A stretch of DNA of 30,807 nt from a virus, in the IMG/VR virus record IMGVR_UViG_3300027898_000033, positions 1 through 30,807 of that record. One strand, 5' to 3'. The notes beneath the pieces are model-generated. The model saw only the letters and a program-made list of their open reading frames with translations, made no database searches and was not told the origin of the DNA. A program made the position numbers and the translations under genes. Below, piece after piece: positions 2,838-22,936 of the stretch; within the stretch, counting starts at the first letter, position 1; every line of letters begins with the position of its first letter.

Positions 2838-3137
2838 ATGGCAAAAGACAAAATCAAACCAATGAATGATTATGTGATCGTAAAACAAGCGGAAGCTGAG
2901 ACCAAGACCAAGGGCGGACTCTATGTTCCCGAGATTGCGGCTCAGGCTCCGCTTTATGGCAAAATCGTTGCTGTGGGACCCGGCAAAATTGATCAAAAAG
3001 GCAATCGCACGGCCATGCAAGTGAAGGCCGGCGATCATGTTTATTTCACAAAAAACGCCTTCATTGAGGTTTCCCACAATGGGACCGAGCATCTTATGAT
3101 GAAAGAAGAGAGAATCCTTCTCATCGAAACCAAGTAA
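2838..3137 (+). CDS. groES: Phage co-chaperonin GroES
   Basis: A 99-residue GroES/Cpn10 homologue of normal family length. It shows the conserved opening (IKPMNDYVIVKQAEAE), the mobile-loop position with TKGGLYVPE, the VGPGK turn, the KAGDHVYF segment and the terminal EERILLIE. GroES caps GroEL during folding; phage versions (such as T4 gp31) replace the host subunit to help fold capsid protein. GGAGGGG at 2830-2836 is a strong ribosome-binding site. There is no GroEL gene in the window, so it would act with the host chaperonin. Its stop directly abuts the stop of the convergent minus-strand gene, with no bases between. Confidence 0.9.
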   Translation: MAKDKIKPMNDYVIVKQAEAETKTKGGLYVPEIAAQAPLYGKIVAVGPGKIDQKGNRTAMQVKAGDHVYFTKNAFIEVSHNGTEHLMMKEERILLIETK

Positions 3138-7246: not shown

Positions 7247-7321
7247 TGGAGTGTAGCACAGAGGTAGTGCAGCGAGCTGTTAACTCGAAGGTCAGAGGTT
7301 CGATCCCTTTCACTCCAGCCA
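7247..7321 (+). tRNA. tRNA-Asn (anticodon GTT)
   Basis: A complete 75-nt cloverleaf. The acceptor stem 7247-7253 pairs perfectly with 7311-7317; the D stem is GCAC/GTGC (7256-7259 with 7267-7270); the anticodon loop is CTGTTAA (7277-7283) with anticodon GTT at 7279-7281; the T arm has the loop TTCGATC (7299-7305). The anticodon stem has one terminal G-A mismatch (7272/7288). The discriminator is G and CCA is encoded at 7319-7321. It may supplement host Asn tRNA or be part of the attachment site. Confidence 0.95.
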
Positions 7322-7322
7322 A

Positions 7323-7400
7323 TTTTTTCAAAGAGTCGGGGCAATCCCGAAAGGTCCCAAATCCAAAGGCGCGGGCAACCTTTGGCGACTCTTTGAAAGA
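7323..7400 (+). ncRNA. Structured RNA element just 3' of the tRNA
   Basis: A 13-bp perfect inverted repeat (7326-7338 with 7386-7398, extendable by wobble pairs) encloses two smaller hairpins: GGG 7338-7340 with CCC 7346-7348, and CCAAAGG 7363-7369 with CCTTTGG 7379-7385. A competing pairing is possible, AAAGGT 7350-7355 with ACCTTT 7378-7383. No T-run follows the 3' arm, so it is not a standard terminator. It could shape tRNA processing or be a recombination-site arm. Seen directly as pairing; function unknown. Confidence 0.5.
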
Positions 7401-7447
7401 ATTTCAAGCTAATTGATTTTTAAAGTTTAATTTGCAAATATCAAAAA

Positions 7448-8234: not shown

Positions 8235-8371
8235 AACGCCTAAATGAACAAGAATTGATTGTGGGGCCGTCGCCCGACCCAGCATATTTGGAGCAAAAAG
8301 AATTTCAAAAGCAGCTGCTTGAAAAGCTGGATACTGTCATTTATGTTCTAGGTCTCATCGGCATAAAATAA
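8231..8371 (+). CDS. Small hypothetical protein
   Basis: A 46-residue protein. ATG 8231 is the best start because it overlaps the preceding TGA; the longer upstream frame would run through the preceding membrane peptide. Sequence runs from a Pro-rich patch (VGPSPDPAYLEQKEF) to an amphipathic C-terminal helix (QLLEKLDTVIYVLGLIGIK). No family recognised. Confidence 0.45.
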   Translation: MKRLNEQELIVGPSPDPAYLEQKEFQKQLLEKLDTVIYVLGLIGIK

Positions 8372-8380
8372 GGGGTAAAA

Positions 8381-9031
8381 ATGATCGATTCACTAGGGCT
8401 CATCTGTCAGACAAATGGCGACCGAGGCGACACGCCTTGCCGAATGGGTCCAGTCATTGCTCAGCAGTTCACTCAATTTGTCATGTCGGACCAAGATTTC
8501 ATTGGCGCTGCCCAAAAGCATTTGCAGGTGAGCCCTGGAGTTTATATTAGGGACCCAGACAAATGGAACCAGCCAAGCGATTTCAGCCGAGACCAGGCCT
8601 CAAGGCTGATGCTTGGGTTTTTTATTGCTGGTCAAATTGATTTGGCAAAAGCTTTTTACAAATTGGCACTAAAAAATTGGTGCAGACATCAAAATGGCGA
8701 CATCATTGGTTTCACAGAATGGGCAAACATTATCCGGGGATTTAAGATGTGGTATCTTTACCCGCTTTTGTGGTTTTTTGATTTGGGTTTTATTTTTGGG
8801 ACAACTATTGGCGTCAAATTAAAACCATGGGATTCGGACAATTTGCAGGTCATTGATCTTTATTTGGCACAAAAAAAATACAATACGCTGCCGGCTTATT
8901 TTGCTTCGTTGTTATACGATAAAGCGGCGGCCAAAGCTCGCTTGCAAGCCAATCTATCAAACGACAATGGCAACAATGGATGCATTGAGGCGCTCAATGC
9001 CAATTTGTATTTTTTGGGATTGCTTCCATAA
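8381..9031 (+). CDS. Paralogous hydrophobic protein A, unknown function
   Basis: A 216-residue protein with GGGG nine bases upstream of ATG 8381. It opens with MIDSLGLICQTNGDRGDTPC, a motif I recognise from uncharacterised phage and prophage proteins, then shows QASRLMLGFFIAGQIDLAKA, an RHQNGDIIGFTEW segment and a hydrophobic aromatic stretch (WYLYPLLWFFDLGFIFGTTI) likely to associate with the membrane. The C-terminal part has LPAYFASLLYDKAAA. The gene at 9671-10288 is a diverged copy with the same motif order. Function is unknown; a catalytic fold using the DG..H/E residues or a membrane receptor or exclusion protein are both open. Confidence 0.65.
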   Translation: MIDSLGLICQTNGDRGDTPCRMGPVIAQQFTQFVMSDQDFIGAAQKHLQVSPGVYIRDPDKWNQPSDFSRDQASRLMLGFFIAGQIDLAKAFYKLALKNWCRHQNGDIIGFTEWANIIRGFKMWYLYPLLWFFDLGFIFGTTIGVKLKPWDSDNLQVIDLYLAQKKYNTLPAYFASLLYDKAAAKARLQANLSNDNGNNGCIEALNANLYFLGLLP

Positions 9032-9261
9032 TGCGAGGCGCAAGCAAGTTAAACCTAAACCAATTCGCGTTTTTGTTTTGTCCACTTGCTTGCGTCTTGC
9101 TTTCATCTTGTTCGACAAAACTTGAAATCGAAACTGATTACATTGAGCCACTTCTTTGGAAAATCGATTGTCGCATAAAATTGAAAGAACAGGAAAATTT
9201 GAATTTGAACCGGGCGCAGATTTTTGAAATTTGCGATTTGCTCAGATTGGGGACCGAATGA
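9031..9261 (+). CDS. Small lipoprotein
   Basis: A 76-residue protein starting at ATG 9031, overlapping the previous stop by one base (TAATG). A hydrophobic segment ends in CVLLSSCS, a good lipobox, so Cys near residue 27 would be lipidated. The mature part is charged and short (STKLEIETDYIEPLLW, KLKEQENLNLNRAQIF). It sits inside a unit with two paralogous hydrophobic proteins, so an envelope-based complex or an outer spanin-like role is possible. An 11-bp inverted repeat lies within its 5' end. Confidence 0.6.
   Translation: MRGASKLNLNQFAFLFCPLACVLLSSCSTKLEIETDYIEPLLWKIDCRIKLKEQENLNLNRAQIFEICDLLRLGTE
9039..9094 (+). repeat. Inverted repeat inside the lipoprotein gene
   Basis: CGCAAGCAAGT at 9039-9049 is perfectly complementary to ACTTGCTTGCG at 9084-9094, leaving a 34-base loop. 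It begins eight bases after the ATG, so the hairpin could reduce initiation or mark a protein-binding site. The arms encode part of the signal region, so some constraint comes from coding. Confidence 0.5.
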
Positions 9262-9670: not shown

Positions 9671-10288
9671 ATGATTGATTCCCACGCGCTCATTATTCAA
9701 CAAAATGGTGAAACCTCGCTTTGTGCTCAAAATATGGGCTCGGTGATCGGATATTACGGCGCAACAGAGCATCAGCCGAGCTCTGACAACCTGATTGCGG
9801 CAGCTGAACAGCATCTTTCGCCGAATCCCGCGGTTTATAAACATCATCCCAAGGCTGAAAATCGCCATTTGTACCTCCCAAAGGACCAAATTGGCCACTT
9901 GATGCTGGGATATGCGATTGCCGGAAGGTTGTCGCTGGTCCGCCAATATTACAAGTCCGTGCAAAAAAACGGATTTCGCCATGCCGACGGGTCTTTCATT
10001 TCATTTGCAGAGATTGGAAACCTGTTGCGCATCTTTTGCGGGAATTGGGCCTATTTTTTGTTGTGCTTTTTTGACATCAGATTTTTATGGCTTGGAAATG
10101 AGCCTGAAAAATGGGCAATGGCTTTGTGGTATGCCAAAAATCGTCACCAGACGCCAATTATTTGGCTTGCGGTTCTTTTTTTGGACAAGGGCAAGGCAAA
10201 TTTTTATTTGAGCGAAAAATCTGGACATCCCGTTAAAGGCTCGCGGGAGGCTTTCCATTGCGACAAATGGTTCATCGACAATATCTGA
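9671..10288 (+). CDS. Paralogous hydrophobic protein B, unknown function
   Basis: A 205-residue protein aligned by motif to the protein encoded at 8381-9031: the start MIDSHALIIQQNGET, a shared LIAAAEQHLSPNPAVY segment, DQIGHLMLGYAIAG, RHADGSFISFAEIGN and the aromatic hydrophobic stretch FLLCFFDIRFLW, then IIWLAVLFLDKGKA. The first copy keeps NGDRGDTPC where this one has NGETSLCAQ. No strong ribosome-binding site is seen. It follows a structured RNA with a terminator, so its expression may be conditional. Its stop directly abuts the stop of the minus-strand gene at 10289. Function unknown. Confidence 0.65.
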   Translation: MIDSHALIIQQNGETSLCAQNMGSVIGYYGATEHQPSSDNLIAAAEQHLSPNPAVYKHHPKAENRHLYLPKDQIGHLMLGYAIAGRLSLVRQYYKSVQKNGFRHADGSFISFAEIGNLLRIFCGNWAYFLLCFFDIRFLWLGNEPEKWAMALWYAKNRHQTPIIWLAVLFLDKGKANFYLSEKSGHPVKGSREAFHCDKWFIDNI

Positions 10289-10477
10289 TCAACTGGCTAG
10301 CGATTCAAGCTCACGATCAAGCTGTGCTCGCAAGGAATGAAGTTTAAGGCGTTTGTGAAACAGCTCATCCTTGAGCTTCGCCGTGCCACTTCCTCCGATG
10401 TGCCAATTTTCATCCAACAGGTCGATAATTGCCAGGATATCGCTCTCGAGAATTTCGATGCGCTCGACTAGGCTCAT
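10289..10477 (-). CDS. Small coiled-coil protein on the minus strand
   Basis: A 62-residue protein read from ATG 10477 (CAGGTC upstream is a weak binding site; TTG 10513 is an alternative giving 74 residues). The chain is strongly helical with heptad-like spacing (VERIEILESDILAIIDLLDE, then LFHKRLKLHSLRAQLDREL), interrupted by a Gly-rich turn (HIGGSGTAK). Composition and the exact abutting of stop codons with the + strand gene argue that it is real, though opposite to its neighbours. It could be a small regulator or dimeric accessory. No family recognised. Confidence 0.5.
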   Translation of the reverse strand: MSLVERIEILESDILAIIDLLDENWHIGGSGTAKLKDELFHKRLKLHSLRAQLDRELESLAS

Positions 10478-10547: not shown

Positions 10548-10583
10548 CGGGCTTGATGGGTGAGATCAAGCCCGGTAGTTTTT
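10548..10583 (+). terminator. Bidirectional intrinsic terminator
   Basis: A perfect 10-bp palindrome, CGGGCTTGAT (10548-10557) with ATCAAGCCCG (10565-10574), surrounds a seven-base loop. On the + strand TTTTT follows at 10579-10583; on the minus strand seven Ts (complement of 10538-10544) follow. It separates the accessory region from the RNA-rich leader of the late operon. Confidence 0.8.
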
Positions 10584-10618
10584 AGGTGCGAAAAAAAAAC
10601 TATTGATGAAGATTTTAA

Positions 10619-11080
10619 TTAAAAAAAATCCAAAATCAAGAGCTTTTTACGCAAACAATGCAAGCCTGAAAAAGTTTTAAAATCAGGCAATGAATTGGGT
10701 GAGTGATTCTTTTTGGCTCGAGGTTGAAGTTTTAAAATCTTCACGCGGCTGATTAAAGGACTGCCAGAGATAAGGCGAACAAAGCCGGACGTTGGCAAGG
10801 GATAGCATGGTCTGAGGACCTCACACTGGTTCAGCCCCCGAAAGGGCATGGCAATTCACTTTGTCTCGAAGACCAAAACGGGATTGAAAGTGAAGGATGG
10901 TTTCAAGGTTTATGCGGGGAAGGGAATACCGGGCCGATACCTTCGCAAGACTGGCCAATTTCCAAAGTCACTGCTAAGCGGTGATTCTGGAAATGAGCCA
11001 GGTACCCGACCGAGAAACTAGACTAAAGATGACCGCCACTCCGAGAGGAGAGGGGATAGGCCCGCTTTTGTCTTTTGAGT
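10619..11080 (+). ncRNA. Candidate large structured noncoding RNA upstream of the terminases
   Basis: No convincing gene lies in 10584-11245. Several strong pairings are visible: GCCTGA/TCAGGC (10664-10669/10683-10688); TGCCA/TGGCA (10762-10766/10793-10797); GGTC/GACC (10809-10812/10817-10820); GCCC/GGGC (10834-10837/10844-10847); TTCACTTT/AAAGTGAA (10855-10862/10887-10894) around GTCT/AGAC; a long arm CTGGC/GCCAG, ATTTCCA/TGGAAAT and TCACTGC/GCGGTGA (10951-11001); CTCC-GAGA-GGAG with a GNRA loop (11039-11050); and CGGGCC/GGCCCG (10930-10935/11059-11064) closing a domain. Density and nesting argue for a folded RNA. Ends are approximate. Between 11081 and 11245 I see only AT-rich leader. Class unknown; large phage RNAs such as GOLLD or ROOL are comparison points only. 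Confidence 0.55.
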
Positions 11081-11245
11081 TTTTTTAACTTAATATCAAA
11101 AACTCAATTTTGTTAAAAAAATGCCGAATCAAATGCAAATTGCCAAATCAATTTAAAATGGGGTACGCTTTAAATATGAATGTTGATGCGTCAAATCAAA
11201 TTTATGCACATAATATGCAAAACAAAATTCCAAAGGTGTTAAGCG

Positions 11246-11614
11246 ATGGCGAACCATTTGCCAAAAGGCGATAAAATGCCGAAAGGAAAACCTTTTGTGA
11301 AGGGTGATCCAAGGGCCGGAAGGCCGAAAGATTCTCCTGAACTGAGGACGATCAAGCGTTTGACTCGGCCTGAGTTTGAACTTTTGATGCAAAAATTGTT
11401 GAATTTAACTCCAAATGAGCTCAATGAATATCAGGGCTCTGTGCTTGAAATGTCGATGGCTTCAATCATTAAAAAATCAATCGAACATGGTGATCATTGG
11501 CGACTGCAATTTTTTATTGAGAGATTATTTGGCAAAGTGACGGATAAAATTGAACTGACTGATAAAACAGGTCCAGCCGCGGGGCTTGCGCGGTTTAAAA
11601 CGCATGGGAAATGA
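11246..11614 (+). CDS. terS: Terminase small subunit
   Basis: A 122-residue protein directly before the large terminase. It opens with a Lys/Gly-rich disordered segment (KGDKMPKGKPFVKGDPRAGR) typical of this small-subunit type, then a helical core (LRTIKRLTRPEFELLMQKLL, SVLEMSMASIIKKSIEHGDH) and a C-terminal patch (IERLFGKVTDKIELTD). Small subunits recognise the packaging site and load the large subunit. AAGGTG lies just before ATG 11246. The gene overlaps the large-subunit start by 11 bases. Assignment rests on position and the recurrent sequence style, since small subunits diverge widely. Confidence 0.75.
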   Translation: MANHLPKGDKMPKGKPFVKGDPRAGRPKDSPELRTIKRLTRPEFELLMQKLLNLTPNELNEYQGSVLEMSMASIIKKSIEHGDHWRLQFFIERLFGKVTDKIELTDKTGPAAGLARFKTHGK

Positions 11615-13076
11615 AAAAATTGATTATGACCTTGAACTCGCGAGAGAGGTTGCGAAATTTGAATTCGATCCGCTGGGATTTGTTGAGCGAACTTTCGCCT
11701 GGGGAAGTGGTGAACTTGTCGACTCTGTTGGGCCAAGGAAATGGCAAACTCAATGCTTTGCAGACATTAGCGGCCACCTTGCTGATCCAAAGTCCAGGTG
11801 CCAGCCTCTCCAAATAGCGGTCGCTTCAGGCCACGGCATTGGCAAATCTTCATTCATCGGAATGGTCTCAAACTGGGCAATGAGCACGCACCACGATTGC
11901 AAAATCGTGATGACAGCGAACACTGAAAATCAGCTTTTGACCAAAACAGTCCCCGAAGTGTCGAAATGGTTTAAACTTTCTGCAACCGCTCATTGGTTTA
12001 AATCAAATGCCACGTCAATTCACGCAATCGATAAGGGCCACGAAAAGACTTGGCGCCTGGATGCTGTGACATGGTCGGAAAACAACACTGAAGCTTTTGC
12101 CGGCCTCCACAATAAGAACAAAATCATTGTTTTGATCTTTGATGAGGCTTCGGCGATTTCAGACAAGGTCTGGGATGTGGCCGAGGGCGCTTTGACTGAT
12201 GAAAACACAATCATTCTGTGGCTGGTTTTTGGAAATCCGACGAGAAACACGGGGAAATTCAAAGATTGTTTCACTCGCAATCGGCATCGCTGGAAAACTT
12301 ATCAAATCGATTCCAGAGATGTTGAGGGAACCAATAAAGAGAAAATCAATTCCTGGATCGAAGATTATGGCGTCGATTCAGATTTTGTGAAAGTTCGCGT
12401 GCGCGGCATGTTCCCGTCTGCTTCGCTCAAGCAATTTATTTCAACTGAAGATGTGGACAAGGCTTTTGGCCGGGCAATTGATCAAAAATCATACAACTTT
12501 GCGCCAAAAATCATCACCTTGGACCCAGCTTGGGAAGGTGGCGATGAGCTTGTCATTGGCATGCGCCAAGGCCTGCATTTTCAAATCATGCGGACTTTGA
12601 TGAAAAACGACAATGACATTGATGTGGCCAACATCCTAGCCCGCATTTGCGATGAACAAAAGCCAGACGCGGTTTTCATCGATGGCGGTTTTGGAACTGG
12701 TATTGTGTCAGCCGGAAAGACTCTCGGGTATCAATGGCGCATTGTCTGGTTTTCGGCAAAATCAGATGATCAAGGATGCATCAATAAGCGAGCCGAGATG
12801 TGGAAGCTGATGCGCGATTGGATCAAAGAAGGCGGCTGCATCCCCGCGGATTCATCACTGCACGATGAGCTTGTGGGGCCTGAAACTGTTGCAAGGCTTG
12901 ATGGAAAAATTCAGCTTGAATCCAAAAAGGATATGAAATCCCGTGGCCAAAGATCACCAAACCGAGCCGATGCGCTGGCCTTAAGTTTTGCTTATCCTGT
13001 GAACAAAAGAAAAACTCCAGAGCCTCAAAACAGATTTCGCGAGCCTTCAAGCGCCGGCTCATCTTGGATGGGATGA
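11604..13076 (+). CDS. terL: Terminase large subunit (packaging ATPase-nuclease)
   Basis: A 490-residue protein from ATG 11604; a TTG at 11586 would add six residues. Walker A is GHGIGKSS at 76-83; Walker B is IVLIFDEA at 175-182 with D180 and E181; the coupling motif FGNPT lies at 209-213. The C-terminal nuclease domain shows D307 (TLDPAW), D360 (FIDGG) and D456 (NRADAL), the three acidic residues of the RNase H-like fold. It pumps DNA into proheads through the portal and cuts concatemers. The length is normal for the family. It is the best sequence for placing this phage in a tree. Confidence 0.95.
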   Translation: MGNEKIDYDLELAREVAKFEFDPLGFVERTFAWGSGELVDSVGPRKWQTQCFADISGHLADPKSRCQPLQIAVASGHGIGKSSFIGMVSNWAMSTHHDCKIVMTANTENQLLTKTVPEVSKWFKLSATAHWFKSNATSIHAIDKGHEKTWRLDAVTWSENNTEAFAGLHNKNKIIVLIFDEASAISDKVWDVAEGALTDENTIILWLVFGNPTRNTGKFKDCFTRNRHRWKTYQIDSRDVEGTNKEKINSWIEDYGVDSDFVKVRVRGMFPSASLKQFISTEDVDKAFGRAIDQKSYNFAPKIITLDPAWEGGDELVIGMRQGLHFQIMRTLMKNDNDIDVANILARICDEQKPDAVFIDGGFGTGIVSAGKTLGYQWRIVWFSAKSDDQGCINKRAEMWKLMRDWIKEGGCIPADSSLHDELVGPETVARLDGKIQLESKKDMKSRGQRSPNRADALALSFAYPVNKRKTPEPQNRFREPSSAGSSWMG

Positions 13077-21270: not shown

Positions 21271-22055
21271 TGTCGAGCACTCCGACAAATGTCATTTCGC
21301 CAGTCCCAAATAATCAGCCAGTGACTGATTCTAATGGCATGATTTCGCAAATTTGGTCTGGGTTTTTCAATCAATTATGGTCTAGAGCCGGCGGATCAAA
21401 TGCGCCCTCAAATTTGGCCCTTTCACAAGCAATCACTGACCTTGCGGCATCCGCGCCAAATTCAATTGTCGGCAATAATACGTCCGCGACTGCCGCGGCG
21501 GTTGATTTGACTCCAGCTCAAGTCAATGCCATGTTGCCGGCTTTCACTTCTTTACTCGCTGGCCTTGTGCCAGCTTCGGGTGGCGGCACTGCAAAATTTT
21601 TGCGGGCCGATGGAACTTTTCAAGTGCCTCCTGTGGCCGTGCTTGATTTTTTTGTTTCAAGCCCAGTTTCAACCTCAAGCTCCTCAATTTCATCAGCATC
21701 ATTTGTGACGGCAAGCAACAGCCCGGCTTTGGCATTTATTCCAAACTATACGGGAAAGTATAAGGTTTACGCCTCAATTCCCATGATTGTTTCCGGCGCG
21801 ACGGTCGCAACAGCTGTTGGACGAATTGCCAACACAACAGGCGGCGGCACTCTTTTGGCTGAATCCCAAGGCGTGGTTTCAGCATCAGCCACAACTGTCG
21901 GAGATGAGGCGTCGGTTTATTGTCAATCCGTGTACTCTTTGAGCTCTGGAATCAACTATATTTTCAACATTCAAGCAAAACTAGACGCTGGCACCGGCGT
22001 CATCATTGATGGAACAAATGCCAATTTTTACATGTTCGCCGAGCGTGTCGCGTGA
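21270..22055 (+). CDS. Tail fibre-like protein
   Basis: A 261-residue protein. The N-terminal part has SQIWSGFFNQLWSRAGG, a virion-attachment-like start, then a segment common in fibre stalks (DLTPAQVNAMLP, GGGTAKFLRADGTFQVP). The C-terminal half, Ser/Thr/Val-rich with YTGKYKVYASIPMIV and IIDGTNANFYMFAERV, looks like a compact beta domain at the tip. Start ATG 21270 overlaps the previous TGA; the stop overlaps the GTG start of the next gene. A host-contact role is likely by position, yet no receptor can be guessed. Confidence 0.7.
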   Translation: MSSTPTNVISPVPNNQPVTDSNGMISQIWSGFFNQLWSRAGGSNAPSNLALSQAITDLAASAPNSIVGNNTSATAAAVDLTPAQVNAMLPAFTSLLAGLVPASGGGTAKFLRADGTFQVPPVAVLDFFVSSPVSTSSSSISSASFVTASNSPALAFIPNYTGKYKVYASIPMIVSGATVATAVGRIANTTGGGTLLAESQGVVSASATTVGDEASVYCQSVYSLSSGINYIFNIQAKLDAGTGVIIDGTNANFYMFAERVA

Positions 22056-22936
22056 AACATCAAATAATGAAAATGGATAAAGCGATTCCAGAGATTGGCA
22101 AAATGAAGATTGAGGCGCTTGAGAAAAAAATGCTGGAGCATGATCAAGTCGAATGCCCAGTCATTCACAGGTTTGGTCCAGGGACATATATTCGCGAGGT
22201 CCACATCCCAGCCGGATCAATTGCAATTGGGCATCATCAAAATTTTGAGCATACCAATGTCATGCTTTCTGGTTGCGTGATTATGCTCAACGAAGATGGC
22301 AGCACAACCGAATTCAAAGCGCCAATGGTCTTCGTCGGCCGCCCTGGACGAAAAGTTGGATACATCAAAGAAGACATGGTCTGGCTCAATGTTTATCCAA
22401 ATGTCGAAAATGAACAAAATATTGAGACCTTGGAAGCAAAATATCTGACAAAATCTGACAATTTTAAACTTTCGGATGCATCACGAAATGCCTTATTGTT
22501 GGGCAATATCTCAATTGATCAAAGGGATTTTCAACAGGCTTTGGTTGATATTGGTGTGCCGGCCCAATTGGTGCGCAATCAATCCGAGAATAAAGATGAC
22601 ATGATGGAGCTTCCTTTCGGCGGCTATCGGTTTAAAATCGCAAATTCACCAATCGAAGGTCGAGGAATTTTTGCCATGGGCGACATTGTGCCAGGCGAGA
22701 TTATTGGACCGGCGAGAATTGGTCAAAAAAGAACAGCGCTTGGCCGATATACAAATCACGGGGCTCAGCCAAATGCAAAATTCATTGCGACAAAAACTGG
22801 CGACATCAATTTGGTGGCCACAAAAAAAATCTTTGGTTGTCGCGGCGGTTTTGATGGCGATGAGGTCTTGGTTGATTATCGGGAAGCATTCAGGCTTAAT
22901 TTAGAATTGGCAAAGGCGGGCAAATGTCAGGTGTAG
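22052..22936 (+). CDS. Cupin-SET domain fusion protein
   Basis: A 294-residue, two-part protein in the tail gene run. Residues about 38-130 look like a cupin barrel: IPAGSIAIGHHQNFEHTNVM with His 61, 62 and 67, a LSGCVIML strand and APMVFVGRPG. Residues about 188-280 match a SET domain: IEGRGIFAMGDIVPGEII, then TNHGAQPN at 234-241 (equivalent to NHSxxPN) and GDEVLVDY at 269-276 with the terminal Tyr. SET domains transfer methyl groups from S-adenosylmethionine to lysine. The start is GTG 22052, coupled to the fibre gene; ATG 22067 is an alternative. The substrate is unknown; another virion protein is plausible. Confidence 0.75.
   Translation: MKHQIMKMDKAIPEIGKMKIEALEKKMLEHDQVECPVIHRFGPGTYIREVHIPAGSIAIGHHQNFEHTNVMLSGCVIMLNEDGSTTEFKAPMVFVGRPGRKVGYIKEDMVWLNVYPNVENEQNIETLEAKYLTKSDNFKLSDASRNALLLGNISIDQRDFQQALVDIGVPAQLVRNQSENKDDMMELPFGGYRFKIANSPIEGRGIFAMGDIVPGEIIGPARIGQKRTALGRYTNHGAQPNAKFIATKTGDINLVATKKIFGCRGGFDGDEVLVDYREAFRLNLELAKAGKCQV

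What the first reader, a model, noticed from the sequence alone, without database searches (positions are those of the whole stretch)
10619..11080. A large, multi-hairpin RNA candidate just upstream of the terminase genes
About 660 bases without a convincing gene hold many perfect complementary arms, including a three-part arm of 19 pairs (10951-11001), an 8-bp stem around a hairpin (10855-10894), a GNRA-capped hairpin (11039-11050) and a distant 6-bp closing pair (10930/11059). This density is unusual for phage intergenic DNA and the segment follows a strong terminator, so it would need its own promoter. Large phage RNAs (GOLLD, ROOL) and packaging RNA near terminases (phi29 pRNA) are known precedents; I do not claim this belongs to either.
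Basis: partly seen in the sequence, partly recalled or inferred. Interest (0 to 1): 0.78.

Follow-up and report, generated by a model that had tools for sequence, protein, structure and literature searches.

The report
Orphan structured RNA before terminase genes
A bacteriophage carries a roughly 320-base stretch without a convincing gene, just ahead of its DNA-packaging genes, that looks like a folded RNA on one strand; it matches no known RNA family, and with no usable relatives its function and even its conservation remain unproven.

Summary
10584-11245 has no convincing gene, and every named arm exists: a 21-pair three-part arm (19 Watson-Crick plus 2 G-U), an 8-bp stem, a GAGA hairpin, and a 6-bp closing helix 10930-10935/11059-11064. 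The core 10750-11075 folds better than shuffles (z about -4; second of 122 same-length windows in this phage). Its 136-nt domain reaches z -5.3 on + against -2.6 on -. On 200-nt windows the region is not exceptional. No Rfam family matches, even at E 10.

The decisive covariation test cannot be made. One sibling phage (L003, TerL 81% identical) keeps the same gene order with a 400-480-nt noncoding stretch there, also better folded on + than - (z about -3 against -0.9). But the two stretches share no convincing sequence or structure, and no further homologue turned up in 8 IMG/VR scans, a GTDB TerL scan, phage and plasmid records, or a covariance-model search.

It follows a terminator and precedes TerS, the first gene of a one-directional late cluster. 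Best guess (about 0.38): a structured late leader controlling entry into the packaging operon, like lambda 6S/tR' or HK022 put. Rivals: a stand-alone phage RNA, or incidental structure. Not GOLLD, ROOL or phi29 pRNA by the tests available.

The parts
10548..10574 (.). Terminator-like hairpin with T tails on both strands; closes the upstream genes, so anything transcribed beyond it on + needs its own start (inference)
   Evidence: Consensus scan finds it on + and -; a similar sequence sits at the same place in L003 (about 466-496), though there it does not pass the scan
10584..10749 (+). A/T-rich lead-in with two look-alike hairpins (10667-10690 and 10724-10743, both with TTTTAAAA); presumed place of the promoter, none recognised
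   Evidence: no + strand sigma-70-type match between the terminator and the core
10750..11075 (+). Core of the candidate structured RNA
   Evidence: z -3.94 and -4.05 on +, -2.54 on -; fold better defined than 56 of 60 shuffles on +; no Rfam match
10855..10894 (+). Hairpin closed by an 8-bp stem with a second inner stem
   Evidence: z -1.8 on its own
10930..11064 (+). Domain closed by CGGGCC/GGCCCG, holding the long arm and the GAGA-capped hairpin
   Evidence: z -5.3 on +, -2.6 on - for 10928-11063
10951..11001 (+). Three-part arm, 21 pairs, two of them G-U
   Evidence: the opposite strand loses pairs at the G-U positions
11065..11114 (+). U-rich run after the closing helix, then a 10-bp A/T-rich inverted repeat with a U-rich tail; possible 3' end or attenuator (inference)
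   Evidence: Inverted repeat 11075-11084/11098-11107; does not pass the strict terminator scan
11246..11614 (+). Probable small terminase gene, first gene of the late cluster
   Evidence: Relative found in L002 (33% identical); no Pfam or PHROG match, so named by position before TerL
11586..13076 (+). Large terminase gene
   Evidence: PHROG 5902 match (annotated unknown function) and relatives beside P22-type genes
10289..10477 (-). Small minus-strand ORF flanking the element; kept in L003 (40% identical) and weakly in G003

Best explanation
10750-11075 (+) is the structured, untranslated leader of the phage's late operon. Shown: it lies between a terminator that closes the upstream genes and TerS, the first gene of a one-directional late cluster (terminase, portal, coat, tail and, if the contig is a circular permutation, lysis); its core fold is stronger on the + strand. 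Inferred: a late promoter in the A/T-rich 10584-10750 starts a transcript that folds into this RNA; the U-rich signals at 11065-11114 end it or pause RNA polymerase; read-through into the packaging genes depends on the folded RNA itself or on a factor acting there, as lambda's 6S/tR' leader depends on Q, or as HK022 put RNA acts by itself.
For: No convincing gene. Core fold beyond shuffles and stronger on +. Terminator on both strands just upstream. All late genes on + starting at TerS 171 bases downstream of the core. Sibling L003 keeps a noncoding, + strand folded stretch at the same place.
Against: No promoter recognised. No covariation test possible. In L003 a convergent 83-aa ORF lies between the stretch and TerS, which does not fit a simple leader there, though that ORF has no relatives. 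put RNAs are about 70 nt (PMC9378689), far smaller than this. No match to any antitermination family was seen.
Confidence: 0.38

Rival explanations
1. A stand-alone phage RNA (GOLLD/ROOL-like in kind, not in sequence) made from its own promoter, ended near 11075-11114, acting in trans during infection or lysogeny.
For: Sharp GC boundaries, U-rich signals after the closing helix, and in L003 a convergent ORF separates the stretch from TerS.
Against: No homologue anywhere searched; smaller than GOLLD and ROOL; no promoter or transcript evidence.
Confidence: 0.27
2. Incidental structure: a spacer between the upstream genes and the late operon that happens to contain one strong hairpin arm and several weak ones, with no selected fold.
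For: At 200 nt the region is ordinary for this phage; coding windows reach similar or lower z; no conservation between siblings in sequence or fold; most P22-like relatives have no such stretch.
Against: The domain z of -5.3 and arm z of -6.7 on +, and the same + strand bias at the same place in L003.
Confidence: 0.25
3. A DNA-level element (packaging or replication site) whose inverted repeats are read by proteins as DNA.
For: Next to TerS; several relatives carry long both-strand inverted repeats in the equivalent gap (L008, L093, L259, L261).
Against: Here the core fold is clearly better on one strand, with G-U pairs in the main arm. In P22-like phages the pac site lies inside the small terminase gene (own knowledge).
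Confidence: 0.06
4. A small protein gene: the 57-aa ORF 10848-11021 (+).
For: Codon usage intermediate, not excluding it.
Against: No relatives; chance ORF of that length in 21% of shuffles; the strongest arm lies inside it.
Confidence: 0.04

Closest known systems
HK022 put RNA (cis-acting antitermination RNA)
   Same: Phage RNA proposed to act in cis on transcription of downstream phage genes near terminators.
   Different: put is about 70 nt with two stem-loops near early promoters (PMC9378689); this is about 320 nt, multi-domain, before late genes, with no sequence test of kinship possible.
lambda 6S RNA / tR' late leader
   Same: Position: between early-side genes and the first late genes, with a terminator-like signal after it (own knowledge of lambda).
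   Different: Larger and more structured; no Q-like gene identified; no promoter recognised.
GOLLD and ROOL RNAs
   Same: Large ornate RNAs of phages and prophages, often near tRNA genes; function unknown (PMC12286853).
   Different: No Rfam match at E up to 10; about 320 nt against 659 nt for one ROOL RNA and over 800 nt for many GOLLD RNAs; the tRNA here is 3.4 kb away.
phi29 packaging RNA (pRNA)
   Same: Near packaging genes.
   Different: P22-type portal and coat, not a phi29-type phage; no Rfam match; about twice the length of pRNA (own knowledge).

Membership tests
GOLLD / ROOL | Match to the family's covariance model | tested here: not met
   No match at gathering score or at E up to 10
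GOLLD / ROOL | Length of about 600-800 nt or more | tested here: not met
   The folded core is about 326 nt; sizes in PMC12286853
GOLLD / ROOL | RNA-only homo-oligomeric cage | not testable with these tools
   Needs cryo-EM
phi29 pRNA | Phi29-type phage and packaging motor | tested here: not met
   P22-type portal and coat; terminase pair of the P22-like relatives
phi29 pRNA | Match to an Rfam pRNA model | tested here: not met
HK022 put RNA | About 70 nt, two stem-loops, close to the early promoters | tested here: not met
   Size and layout differ
HK022 put RNA | Antitermination in cis without a protein | not testable with these tools
   Needs a reporter or in vitro assay
lambda 6S/tR' type late leader | Late promoter upstream and terminator downstream of the leader | tested here: inconclusive
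   No promoter found and the downstream signal misses the strict scan; a U-rich inverted repeat is present
A conserved RNA family shared with the L003 stretch | Alignable homologues with covarying pairs | tested here: inconclusive
   Same position and + strand bias but sequence and structure alignments no better than shuffles apart from two short look-alikes, p about 0.01-0.02 uncorrected

The most novel reading that the evidence does not exclude
A new, fast-evolving family of structured phage RNAs sits at the head of the late operon in a rare lineage of P22-like phages. Its position and + strand fold are kept while the sequence turns over almost completely, and it acts as a protein-free switch for late transcription or as a stand-alone RNA machine.
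Probability: 0.25. Interest if true: 0.62.

Novelty: new member of a known kind. Interest (0 to 1): 0.36.

Why it matters
Large phage RNAs of unknown function are known, but few are tied to a place in the phage programme. A structured RNA fixed at the entrance of the late operon, if real, would give a direct test of whether RNA alone can control late gene expression in P22-like phages. If it is incidental structure, it shows how easily dense hairpins in phage spacers look like RNA genes.

Tried and rejected
Known RNA families: Rfam at gathering score and at E up to 10, nothing at the finding or in L003. Group I intron: the GACUA-like motif at 11020 suggested it, but no partner strand was seen by eye and there is no Rfam hit. 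tRNA or tmRNA: none here.

Small genes: no relatives for either ORF.

Homologue hunts: DNA motifs in IMG/VR; the L003 repeat CTSAACAGGTRAGCYSATGACC, whose 25 other hits are mostly single matches inside long open frames with no second copy or shared neighbour motif, so taken as chance; TerS, TerL and upstream-protein scans; GTDB genomes by TerL; covariance model of the 136-nt domain, built from the single window sequence, in 85 sources and 247 genomes (an empty genome answer proves little).

Homology of window and L003 stretches: local look-alikes GCAAGRGRTAGCAT-GGTCT (p 0.009-0.024 with two scorings, 0.74 with a third) and, in the opposite orientation, CCCCSGAAAGGGCATRGCAA (p about 0.007-0.017). 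Both are uncorrected and point to opposite orientations, so not accepted as homology. A script written here for combined sequence-structure alignment gave z -0.3 and 0.4 against shuffles; that run stopped at the time limit after two of four settings.

Structured gaps before TerS in other TerL relatives: mostly both-strand inverted repeats, judged unlike this one. The host was not identified, so no targeted search of host prophages was possible.

Full report
Setting. The window is an IMG/VR virus record of 30,807 bases. It has a P22-type portal and coat and an integrase and a tRNA-Asn. The gene order is early-side genes and integrase, tRNA, small unknown genes, the finding, TerS, TerL, portal, coat and tail. 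The long open frame at the right end continues in frame into the left end, and an endolysin follows the left-end genes. This fits a circularly permuted genome in which TerS is the first gene of one long + strand late cluster; that the ends really join is inference.

The observation. The stretch has no gene with relatives. Its 57-codon ORF is what chance gives in a fifth of shuffles, although codon usage does not exclude it.

Is the structure more than chance? Yes for the core. The 326 bases 10750-11075 have z about -4 on + and -2.5 on -, second of 122 such + strand windows in this phage, whose background already averages -0.94. The 136-nt closed domain has z -5.3 on + and -2.6 on -, and its long arm alone -6.7. 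The fold is better defined than in most shuffles on + (4 of 60 shuffles as well defined) and not on - (21 of 60). Against this: with 200-nt windows the region is unremarkable apart from the terminator, the first third of the core is unstructured (z -0.8), and the whole 662 bases score lower on the minus strand than on plus (20 shuffles each).

Comparison. TerL finds one close sibling with the upstream region, L003 (81% identical TerL). It keeps the order: end of the 205-aa-type ORF, small minus ORF, terminator-like remnant, then a noncoding stretch of about 400-480 nt, also GC-richer than its flanks and with a + strand fold (z -3.1 and -2.6 on +, -0.9 on -; no shuffle of 60 as well defined). 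Yet the two stretches cannot be aligned: no global similarity and no shared fold in a combined sequence-structure alignment. Only two short look-alikes are found, in opposite orientations, each around p 0.01-0.02 before correction. Another sibling (G003, TerL 74% identical) has a weak homologue of the small minus ORF at the last bases of its contig, so whether it has the RNA is unknown. Most other TerL relatives have no comparable stretch; several of those that do carry both-strand inverted repeats of a different kind. No sequence homologue was found in phage or plasmid records, in all eight IMG/VR scans, or by a covariance model of the domain in the held loci and 247 genomes.

Mechanism. Shown: terminator on both strands just before, + strand bias of the core, position at the head of the late cluster. 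Inferred: promoter in the A/T-rich lead-in (none recognised), 3' end or pause at 11065-11114, control of entry into the packaging genes. lambda's late leader (own knowledge) and HK022 put RNA (PMC9378689) are the closest working models, and only as models. The L003 arrangement, with a convergent ORF between the stretch and TerS, favours a stand-alone RNA instead. Incidental structure remains a real possibility.

Known families. GOLLD, ROOL and phi29 pRNA fail on Rfam match, on size or on phage type. put fails on size and layout. The element is best filed as an orphan candidate structured phage RNA.

Noticed in passing
window 7325-7402: Directly after tRNA-Asn (7247-7321) lies a hairpin with a long closing stem (CAAAGAGTCG/CGACTCTTTG) and inner hairpins, like a three-way junction; z -3.2, one shuffle of 200 as good.
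   Followed up: partly
window 2838-3137: The phage encodes a GroES/Cpn10 co-chaperonin (PF00166, E 1.3e-27).
   Followed up: no
window 8381-9031 and 9671-10288: Two paralogous unknown proteins of 216 and 205 aa, 34% identical; the stretch around the first (8258-9033) is 79% identical in DNA to an otherwise different phage, L185, which suggests recent transfer.
   Followed up: partly
window 22052-22936: Weak match of the C-terminus to the SET domain (PF00856, E 7e-4, below the curated cut-off) in a structural-gene cluster.
   Followed up: no
L008 3679-4131, L093 3996-4594, L259 3762-4317, L261 3833-4115: Other TerL relatives carry long nested inverted repeats, strong on both strands, in the gap upstream of TerL; purpose unknown.
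   Followed up: partly
L003 698-719 and 804-825: The sibling's noncoding stretch holds a 22-nt motif twice (CTSAACAGGTRAGCYSATGACC), each copy followed by a small hairpin; it may be a repeated RNA motif.
   Followed up: partly
window 11246-11614 against L003 1643-2089: TerL is 81% identical between the siblings, but the window's TerS is of another type (relative in L002; no PHROG match) than L003's phrog_51-type TerS, so the small subunit appears to have been swapped.
   Followed up: no
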